A stretch of 46,630 nt of DNA, taken from positions 1 through 46,630 of the forward strand of contig JAFWYB010000009.1 of assembly GCA_017517865.1 (NCBI GenBank), written 5' to 3'. The stretch comes from Clostridia bacterium. Its GTDB lineage: Bacteria > Bacillota > Clostridia > Oscillospirales > Acutalibacteraceae. This document shows positions 3,957-44,395 of this stretch, piece after piece. The notes under the pieces were generated by a model. The model saw nothing but the letters and a program-made list of their open reading frames with translations, did not search any database and was not told the origin of the DNA. The number at the start of each line of letters is the position of its first letter. Within the stretch, counting starts at the first letter, position 1. The translations under genes were made by a program, and so were the position numbers.

Positions 3957-4457
3957 TTACAGAATCCCTTCATAATTTCCGTTAAGCATATCTTCATAAG
4001 TTGGAAGAGATTTTATAGATACTAACATTTTATTATCCAACTCACAATACGCTACGTCTACATAATCACCATCTGTAATCATTGCATAGTTACAACCTAA
4101 CTGTTCAGCGTAGTGTAACGTTTGTTCAATAATAACTCCATCGATCAATGTATTATTTCTCTTACATTCAATCACAGCCATCGGAACAGCTTCACCTGTT
4201 TCTTCGCTTTTTTTCAATATAAGAATATCAGGTCTTTTTGATGAAACAACCTTGTAATACGACATAGCTGTTTCTTCATCAATCATATACTCCGGAACTT
4301 TCAATTCATCAATCAAATAAGTCAGAACTTGTTGTCTGACCTTTTCTTCAGGTGTAAACAAAACATCCTTTTTTCTGACTTTATCGTAAATATACTTCTT
4401 ACCATTTTTTATAACTATTTCCGGTATTTCATATTTATCAAAAACCATATAACCCAT
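3957..4457 (-). CDS. Stand-alone HsdR N-terminal-like (HSDR_N) nuclease-fold protein
   Basis: 166 residues. The segment TPEEKVRQQVLTYLIDEL followed by RPDILILKK and AVIECKRN is the PD-(D/E)xK core found in the N-terminal domain of type I restriction R subunits (HSDR_N). No helicase motor or specificity subunit is present, so this is not a type I system. Free-standing copies occur in many Firmicutes and their role is unknown. A strong AGGAGGAATA site precedes the ATG at 4457. The gene is visibly AT-richer than most of the window, which could mean transfer. Confidence 0.75.
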   Translation of the reverse strand: MGYMVFDKYEIPEIVIKNGKKYIYDKVRKKDVLFTPEEKVRQQVLTYLIDELKVPEYMIDEETAMSYYKVVSSKRPDILILKKSEETGEAVPMAVIECKRNNTLIDGVIIEQTLHYAEQLGCNYAMITDGDYVDVAYCELDNKMLVSIKSLPTYEDMLNGNYEGIL

Positions 4458-7458: not shown

Positions 7459-7545
7459 TGGTGCCGGTGACCGGACTTGAACCGGTACGGTGTTGCCACC
7501 GAGGGATTTTAAGTCCCTTGCGTCTGCCTATTCCGCCACACCGGC
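7459..7545 (-). tRNA. tRNA-Leu (anticodon UAA)
   Basis: 87 nt including an encoded CCA. The acceptor GCCGGTG/CACCGGC is complete. The anticodon stem AGGGA/TCCCT encloses loop CTTAAAA, giving anticodon UAA. There is a long variable arm (CGGTGGCAACACCG), as expected for class II tRNA-Leu, and a T-arm with GGTTCAAGTCC. It is transcribed from its own near-consensus promoter and ends in a strong terminator. Confidence 0.97.
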
Positions 7546-20024: not shown

Positions 20025-20068
20025 CAATATATATGCAAATCACAGCAAAAATACTGCTCTTTCACAGT

Positions 20069-20230
20069 TATAATAGCACTCCGCAATTGCGACAGTCGGT
20101 CAAATCTTATTTCAACCGCCCAGGTAGCCTTTCGCCTGACTCCTTCGGCGACCAGCCCTTTCTAAATCGGCAGAACCTGCGAAGCCCCTTTAGCCGAAAA
20201 ATACTGATACTGTATCGCGCCTCTATCATA
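20069..20230 (-). promoter_or_regulatory. Lysine riboswitch (L-box) aptamer
   Basis: The 162-nt minus-strand RNA carries the L-box core: GATAGAGGCGCGA near the 5' end, AAGGGGCTTCGCAGG, GGTCGCCGAAGG, the GGCGGTTGAAATAAG region, and GACTGTCGC with GGAGTGCTAT near the 3' end. The closing stem P1 is TATGATAG (20223-20230) with CTATTATA (20069-20076), eight pairs with one G-U. Lysine binding should favour the downstream terminator and switch off dapA-dapB-ddh-lysA. Recognition is by recalled consensus and pairing, not by covariance search. Confidence 0.92.
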
Positions 20231-20272
20231 AATGAAATATTCGGTTTTGACCTATATGTAATAGGTATAGAA

Positions 20273-31228: not shown

Positions 31229-31300
31229 AGGCAGAGTTCCCCTCTCCGTCCTCCGGACACCTCTCCCAAAGGGAGAAGCAGGAAGCTCAGCGATTTACTG
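31229..31300 (+). repeat. Possible short interspersed palindromic repeat
   Basis: A non-coding C/T-rich stretch with nested inverted repeats: GTCCtCCGGAC and TCTCCCaaaGGGAGA. The style (CTCTCCCAAAGGGAGA) resembles intergenic repeats I recall from gut Ruminococcaceae. There is no second copy in this window to prove it is repetitive. Confidence 0.4.
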
Positions 31301-31316
31301 TGAGGTTGGAGAAAAA

Positions 31317-31434
31317 AGGCGGCTCCCTGCACGCGGTCCTTGCTCTTGCAAGGGCCGCGTGACTTTTGCGGGAACAAGGTTCCCGCAAAAGAAGCGGAGC
31401 GACCGAAGGGTCGCTCCGCTTCAGGGAGCCGCCT
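31317..31434. repeat. Four-armed cloverleaf palindrome
   Basis: A 118-bp element built of four abutting stems. The outer stem (31317-31329 with 31422-31434) is 13 bp and perfect (AGGCGGCTCCCTG/CAGGGAGCCGCCT). Arm 2 (31330-31343 with 31348-31361) is 14 bp with one T-G pair, loop TCTT. Arm 3 (31363-31375 with 31379-31391) is 13 bp and perfect, loop AAG. Arm 4 (31392-31404 with 31409-31421) is 13 bp and perfect, loop GAAG. Only A31362 is unpaired at the junction. It lies between convergent genes. It could be a REP/MITE-like mobile palindrome or a structured bidirectional 3' end. Confidence 0.9.
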
Positions 31435-31465
31435 CCCCGTTACCGCTATGTTAATTTTTTATTCT

Positions 31466-44221: not shown

Positions 44222-44340
44222 TGATATGACTCCCTTCATTTTTATTTAATGTGATGAAAGCTTATCACCGTAAAAGAAAAAAGATTGTCATAAAAGCAAT
44301 ATGCCGTGAATAAAATTCAGGTTTCTTAAAATAAATGCCG

Positions 44341-44368
44341 GCGGAGCCGATTCTGAAATCGGCTCCGC
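44341..44368. repeat. 12-bp perfect hairpin
   Basis: GCGGAGCCGATT, loop CTGA, AATCGGCTCCGC. There is no U tract on either strand, so not a typical terminator. The neighbouring GAAGCGGAGC motif (minus strand) also begins arm 4 of the cloverleaf at 31391-31400. Confidence 0.6.
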
Positions 44369-44395
44369 TTCGTGCATATTTGAAAGGAGAGGGGA

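What the first reader, a model, noticed from the sequence alone, without database searches (positions are those of the whole stretch)
31317..31434. Near-perfect four-armed cloverleaf DNA element between convergent genes
Three perfect or near-perfect 13-14 bp hairpins are packed end to end inside a perfect 13-bp outer stem, with a single unpaired base at the junction. This is far too ordered for chance and needs selection or replication of the whole unit. It is not a simple terminator (no U tract) and encodes no protein. It may be a mobile palindromic element (REP/MITE-like, moved by a transposase elsewhere), a cruciform-forming protein site, or a structured RNA 3' end. The hairpin at 44341-44368, preceded by the same GAAGCGGAGC string, may be a relative.
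Basis: seen in the sequence. Interest (0 to 1): 0.72.

Follow-up and report, generated by a model that had tools for sequence, protein, structure and literature searches.

The report
Species-expanded cloverleaf DNA repeat family
The window holds one copy of a repeated DNA element that can fold into a near-perfect four-armed cloverleaf; from copy to copy its ends stay the same while its three hairpins change sequence but keep pairing, which points to an undescribed spreading element that works as folded DNA rather than as RNA.

Summary
In detail: window 31318-31433 folds into a 12-13 bp outer stem enclosing three hairpins. It is one of at least 20 copies in its genome. In the 34 held genomes of the genus, GGCGGCTCC...GGAGCCGCC elements occur in five species (20, 29, 2, 2, 1 copies); the pattern is absent from the other 29. 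All 54 copies fold with exactly three hairpins. Hairpins differ strongly between copies yet stay paired: 1454 two-sided Watson-Crick differences against 138 one-sided. G-U pairs are about 1% on either strand, whereas adjacent terminators have 23 of 286 on the sense strand and 1 of 263 on the other. Some loops occur in both orientations. Pairing therefore looks like a DNA-level property. Copies lie between genes, often just past intrinsic terminators, with a degenerate flank motif and no detected target duplication. Best reading: a non-autonomous REPIN/MITE-like element acting as folded DNA, its hairpins rewritten by template switching. The mover is unknown; Y1 transposases do not track it. New variant of a known kind.

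The parts
31318..31433 (.). whole cloverleaf element (116 bp), one of at least 20 copies in the genome
31317..31329 (.). outer stem, left arm (31318-31329 is GGCGGCTCCCTG; first nine bases are shared by the five carrier species; 31317 pairs in this copy)
31330..31361 (.). hairpin A (14 pairs incl. one G-T, loop 4); sequence varies between copies
31363..31391 (.). hairpin B (13 bp, loop 3); CTTTTGCG-type base common in this species
31392..31421 (.). hairpin C (13 bp, loop 4); AAGCGG-type base common in this species
31422..31434 (.). outer stem, right arm (31422-31433 is CAGGGAGCCGCC)
31297..31316 (.). left flank; outward reading CTCCAACCTCACAGTAAA resembles the degenerate flank motif (the motif is well anchored in G043, only loosely in this species)
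31435..31452 (.). right flank; outward reading CCCCGTTACCGC resembles the degenerate flank motif

Best explanation
One copy of a family of small (75-127 bp), non-autonomous, palindromic DNA elements that multiply within some species of one genus. SHOWN: shared nine-base ends, exactly three hairpins in 54 of 54, pairing kept through two-sided changes, equal behaviour of both strands, loops found in both orientations, intergenic placement with 3'-end distances clustered near 67 bp and often just past an intrinsic terminator, presence in some species and not others. INFERRED: the element acts as extruded or single-stranded DNA; a trans-acting DNA enzyme recognises the constant outer stem at the four-way junction and moves the folded strand to sites near terminators; the hairpins need only be hairpins, so their sequence drifts while template switching between arms during replication restores perfect pairing and flips loops. 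The enzyme was not identified and insertion itself was not observed.
For: Dispersed copies, largely unrelated flanks. Three hairpins in 54 of 54. 1454 two-sided WC against 138 one-sided and 101 other two-sided differences. GU symmetric on both strands while 28 adjacent terminators are strongly asymmetric. Reverse-complement loop pairs in G043 hairpin 1: 38 against 28 identical, 0 reversed, 7 complemented, 0 of 2000 shuffles. Flank motif: G043 log-likelihood 159 against 36-45 in shuffles, G000 93 against 37-46. Terminator aimed at the element in 18 of 29 G043 copies. Presence/absence at one orthologous site: 2 of 11. REPINs likewise have constant ends and compensatory changes in the hairpin spacer (PMC3116915, passages).
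Against: No insertion seen; no target duplication above permutation; no precise empty site. Y1 transposases in 2 of 5 carriers and 19 of 29 non-carriers; no further facing pair of ends framing a gene in G000. Only 6 of 20 G000 copies have a terminator by the same rule, and the G000 flank motif has no fixed offset. Loop inversion is clear in three of six hairpin sets, not in the others. The motif controls had fewer restarts (6 against 20) and mononucleotide shuffles. Copies within G000 are well diverged, so recent movement is not evident.
Confidence: 0.5

Rival explanations
1. A chromosomal protein or cruciform site (BIME-like: gyrase, nucleoid or junction-binding protein) kept by selection for supercoil or chromosome handling between transcription units, copied only rarely.
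For: Intergenic, often at 3' ends and between terminators; strand-symmetric; structure kept while sequence drifts; one copy held in common by two species.
Against: Absent by the end pattern from 29 of 34 congeners, and numbers swing from 0 to 29; 9 of 11 syntenic sites lack it. No binding data.
Confidence: 0.2
2. A structured RNA at transcript ends: terminator, mRNA stabiliser or bidirectional insulator.
For: 3'-end proximity (median 67 bp); stem-loops at 3' ends are common in bacteria (PMC1590033, passages); very stable fold.
Against: GU 14 of 1231 sense against 11 of 1225 antisense, while terminators next to it show 23 of 286 against 1 of 263. Many G043 copies lie beyond an intrinsic terminator. 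No Rfam match. Triloops do not favour one strand in G043 hairpin 1.
Confidence: 0.12
3. A by-product of mutation only: template switching makes and perfects palindromes, and no unit is moved or selected.
For: Perfect arms, two-sided changes and loop inversion are template-switch signatures (PMC8794818, passages). A neighbouring single hairpin in G008/G020 also stays paired.
Against: Does not explain shared nine-base ends, three hairpins in 54 of 54, the flank motif or absence from 29 congeners.
Confidence: 0.1

Closest known systems
REP/REPIN elements with RAYT (TnpA-REP) transposases
   Same: Short, extragenic, dispersed, constant ends with a structured middle in which compensatory changes are common; thought to move as folded ssDNA (PMC3116915, PMC8266576, passages).
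   Different: Closed cloverleaf with three hairpins instead of one palindrome or hairpin pair; no GTAG/CGTC tag (7 and 4 of 108 flanks); no RAYT correlation; loops inverted freely in some hairpins, whereas inverting the loop impaired cleavage of one REP; GT pairs rare, whereas often seen in REP stems (PMC3733652, passages).
Larger palindromic/MITE-like repeats of bacteria (Ype, Efa and similar)
   Same: Larger than REPs, palindromic, preferring 3' ends of genes (PMC1590033, passages).
   Different: Conserved as sequence families (recalled); here sequence is conserved only at the ends. No target duplication found here. I did not compare sequences with them.
Repetitive/double hairpin elements of mitochondrial DNA
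   Same: Intergenic, potentially mobile multi-hairpin repeats of unknown function and differing structure (PMC2800124, passages).
   Different: Bacterial, always three hairpins inside a closing stem, fixed ends.
Group IIC introns (target choice only)
   Same: Found a short distance downstream of intrinsic terminators (PMC3240598, passages).
   Different: The element is 75-127 bp and no Rfam family matches it.

Membership tests
REP/REPIN | Dispersed, extragenic, multicopy palindrome | tested here: met
   20 and 29 copies in two species, mostly between ORFs
REP/REPIN | GTAG or CGTC tetranucleotide next to the palindrome | tested here: not met
   GTAG/CTAC in 7 and CGTC/GACG in 4 of 108 flanks of 8 nt
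REP/REPIN | Association with a RAYT (Y1) transposase | tested here: not met
   PF01797 in 2 of 5 carriers and 19 of 29 non-carriers; the single G000 Y1 gene has no element ends beside it in the stretch read
MITE | Terminal inverted repeats | tested here: met
   outer stem 11 bp or more in 54 of 54
MITE | Target-site duplication | tested here: not met
   no offset above permutation for words of 2-8 nt within 45 nt, 54 copies
MITE | Autonomous partner with the same ends | tested here: inconclusive
   14 further GGCGGCTCC sites in G000 form no facing pair within 20 kb; genome 95.6% complete, 70 contigs
Structured RNA | Strand-specific pairing (GU tolerated on one strand) | tested here: not met
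   14 of 1231 against 11 of 1225; terminator control 23 of 286 against 1 of 263
Structured RNA | Transcription of the element | not testable with these tools
   no RNA-seq at hand
Intrinsic terminator | U tract directly after the GC-rich stem | tested here: not met
   window copy is followed by TCCCCGTTACC; the flanks listed mostly begin with mixed C-rich sequence

The most novel reading that the evidence does not exclude
A previously undescribed class of bacterial mobile DNA that moves as a folded four-way-junction cloverleaf, recognised by junction shape plus a nine-base outer stem, while its hairpins are continually rewritten arm-to-arm by template switching, so that natural families record template-switch mutation in bacteria.
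Probability: 0.3. Interest if true: 0.85.

Novelty: new variant of a known kind. Interest (0 to 1): 0.62.

Why it matters
If right, it adds a bacterial repeat architecture (a closed cloverleaf with interchangeable hairpins) in which shape is conserved at DNA level with little sequence conservation inside. Ordinary similarity searches miss it: BLAST with the window copy found nothing in 38 relatives, yet pattern and covariance searches found carriers. It supplies 54 natural hairpin sets for testing how compensatory changes arise, and a simple internal-control test (G-U asymmetry against adjacent terminators) for telling folded-DNA from folded-RNA elements.

Tried and rejected
RAYT/IS200 mobilisation: not supported, PF01797 does not track the element. 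Rfam and tRNA: no match on the element. Phage and plasmid origin: blastn no match. IMG/VR: the 12-mer-end pattern gave 0; the 9-base-end patterns gave 68 and 41 contigs, and the tolerant scan found no cloverleaf in those 109 loci. Wider taxa: 12-mer-end pattern 0 in GTDB genome contigs, where records near the window's own may be left out; 9-base-end pattern in 394 order genomes hit G000 and one site in G124, which was seen only as truncated letters and not folded; the backwards control hit about 16 of those genomes, so one stray hit is expected by chance. Covariance model over 120 family genomes: G000 and G502 only; G502 is not a cloverleaf. That search used stricter filters and also missed G008, so its negative is weak. 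Twelve-mer hits in relatives: 19 of 19 loci folded, none a cloverleaf. CM hit C1:153962 is not a cloverleaf. Precise empty sites: beyond the 103-aa ORF homologue the neighbouring genes differ in G005 and G003; the UxuA-ABC gaps of relatives showed no alignable empty site. Flank pairing beyond the stem: no consistent excess over permutation (largest z 2.4 at the second base).

Limits: gene contexts rest on longest-ORF calls, not a gene finder, with spurious ORFs overlapping several copies; the background gaps were limited to 40-1000 bp and the element-bearing gaps were not. The sequence-blind scan is insensitive: it reported 3 of the 7 known copies in the G000 sample (the perfect-stem version 1 of 7), so its single hit in 400 kb of G001, G014 and G040 is a lower bound. 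One search searched inner lengths of 40-100 nt only.

Full report
1. The observation. The sequence at 31318-31433 forms a closed cloverleaf: outer stem GGCGGCTCCCTG/CAGGGAGCCGCC (13 bp counting the A-T at 31317/31434), then hairpins of 14, 13 and 13 pairs with one unpaired base. ssDNA folding gives z -13.05. Among 1163 windows of 118 nt it is the extreme by far. It lies between a 103-aa ORF downstream of spoIIP and an alpha-L-fucosidase gene, convergent.

2. It is a repeat. BLAST of the window copy against its own genome gave 12 further places spanning most of the query, plus three hits of single hairpins. The 12-mer end exposed two more copies with a mismatch in one outer arm, and a covariance model found five more that share only the outermost end GGCGGCTCC. 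That makes 20 copies. Copies with both outer arms changed could be missed.

3. It occurs in congeners with other hairpins. BLAST found nothing in 38 relatives, 23 of them congeners, but the nine-base ends with 40-100 nt between them occur 29 times in G043, 2 in G007, 2 in G008 and 1 in G020; 29 of 34 genus genomes have none, and the backwards control pattern has none in any of the 34. Each of the 54 copies folds into an outer stem with exactly three hairpins, although the pattern did not demand hairpins; in a few copies one hairpin is decayed (for example two G043 third hairpins of 4 bp).

4. The hairpins vary but stay paired. Within G000 and G043, comparing stems of equal length, 1454 pair differences are two-sided Watson-Crick changes, 138 one-sided and 101 other two-sided; these count pairs of copies, not independent events. 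Inner stems of the 54 copies hold 1592 WC, 20 GU, 8 AC, 8 other and 20 bulged positions; 157 of 162 loops have 3 or 4 nt. In G000 the three hairpins diverge together (rho 0.52-0.58); in G043 they are nearly independent (rho 0.22, -0.08, 0.05).

5. DNA, not RNA. In 31 copies with tandem neighbours the direction of possible read-through is known. GU pairs are 14 of 1231 on that strand and 11 of 1225 on the other. For 28 of the 29 intrinsic terminators found beside elements, by a rule blind to GU versus AC, the figures are 23 of 286 and 1 of 263. Over all 54 copies the two strands, taken as found, give 27 of 2222 and 16 of 2213. Loops also invert: in G043 hairpin 1, GAA and TTC occur 5 times each; reverse-complement loop pairs 38, identical 28, reversed 0, complemented 7, and 0 of 2000 column shuffles reach 38. 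The other two sets tested, chosen because they showed an excess, gave 2 of 2000 (G043 hairpin 3) and 0 of 2000 (G000 hairpin 2). G043 hairpin 2 and G000 hairpins 1 and 3 show little or no excess. Arm homogenisation and loop inversion are predicted marks of template switching (PMC8794818, passages).

6. Where it sits. By longest-ORF calls, 48 of 54 copies face at least one 3' end, against 65 of 92 other gaps in the same loci (p 0.013); convergent 15 of 52 against 13 of 92 (p 0.047). Distances to 3' ends have median 67 (n 63), to 5' ends 141 (n 43). An intrinsic terminator aimed at the element was found for 18 of 29 copies in G043, 6 of 20 in G000, 1 of 1 in G020 and 0 of 4 in G007 and G008; 27 of the 29 T-tracts start 23-41 nt from the element; shuffled flanks gave 14 of 1080. 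In G043 the flanks, read outward, carry a degenerate motif (CTCACCTTTACCGC-like) in 50 of 58, at offset 0-4 in 38 of these; in G000 a weaker A-rich motif without fixed offset; both score above shuffles, though the shuffles had fewer restarts. The flanks show no consistent pairing and no target duplication.

7. Turnover. G008 and G020 share one copy at an orthologous site (83% identity over 4.5 kb), with a base pair changed on both sides in one hairpin and a degenerate middle hairpin in G020. Of 11 genomes with both flanking genes in view, 9 lack it and have 29-600 bp between the aligned parts. Copies are thus gained or lost between species; the direction and the act of insertion are inferred.

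8. Mechanism. Constant outer bases with free-running hairpins fit recognition of a junction plus outer stem by a DNA enzyme (inference). Y1 transposases occur in 21 of 34 genomes without relation to the element: 2 of 5 carriers, 19 of 29 others. In G000, 39 of 53 GGCGGCTCC sites are element arms; the 14 others, fewer than the 57 of the backwards control, form no facing pair within 20 kb. The mover is unknown, and a static DNA-binding role remains the main rival.

9. Known relatives. REPINs resemble it most in working style (PMC3116915, passages). REPs are defined by tagged palindromes and RAYTs (PMC3733652, PMC8266576, passages); both features were tested and not met. Terminator-proximal targeting recalls group IIC introns (PMC3240598, passages). 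No description of such a cloverleaf family turned up in the literature searches; the library is open-access only and the terms were few, so this is weak.

Noticed in passing
window 31233-31286: A separate short palindromic repeat (CTCTCCGTCCTCCGGACACCTCTCCC...) abuts the element; similar stretches lie in G005 (4 places), G042 and G014, and similar sequence lies beside other element copies.
   Followed up: partly
window 44338-44371: Solo GC-rich hairpin whose 3' arm ends in the reverse complement of GAAGCGGAGC; not a cloverleaf.
   Followed up: yes
window 20066-20233 (-) and 7459-7545 (-): Lysine riboswitch (Rfam) and tRNA-Leu(taa).
   Followed up: no
L301 2221-2307 and 2562-2648 (G002): Two near-identical cloverleafs with other ends (GCGCGGGGAGC) about 340 bp apart.
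   Followed up: partly
L136 about 4154-4200 and L300 about 2180-2225: Beside the orthologous element a further single hairpin also differs in sequence between the two species yet stays paired.
   Followed up: no
G043 flanks: By eye, one flank of a G043 element often starts with G and the other with T or C, apparently regardless of hairpin order; not counted.
   Followed up: no
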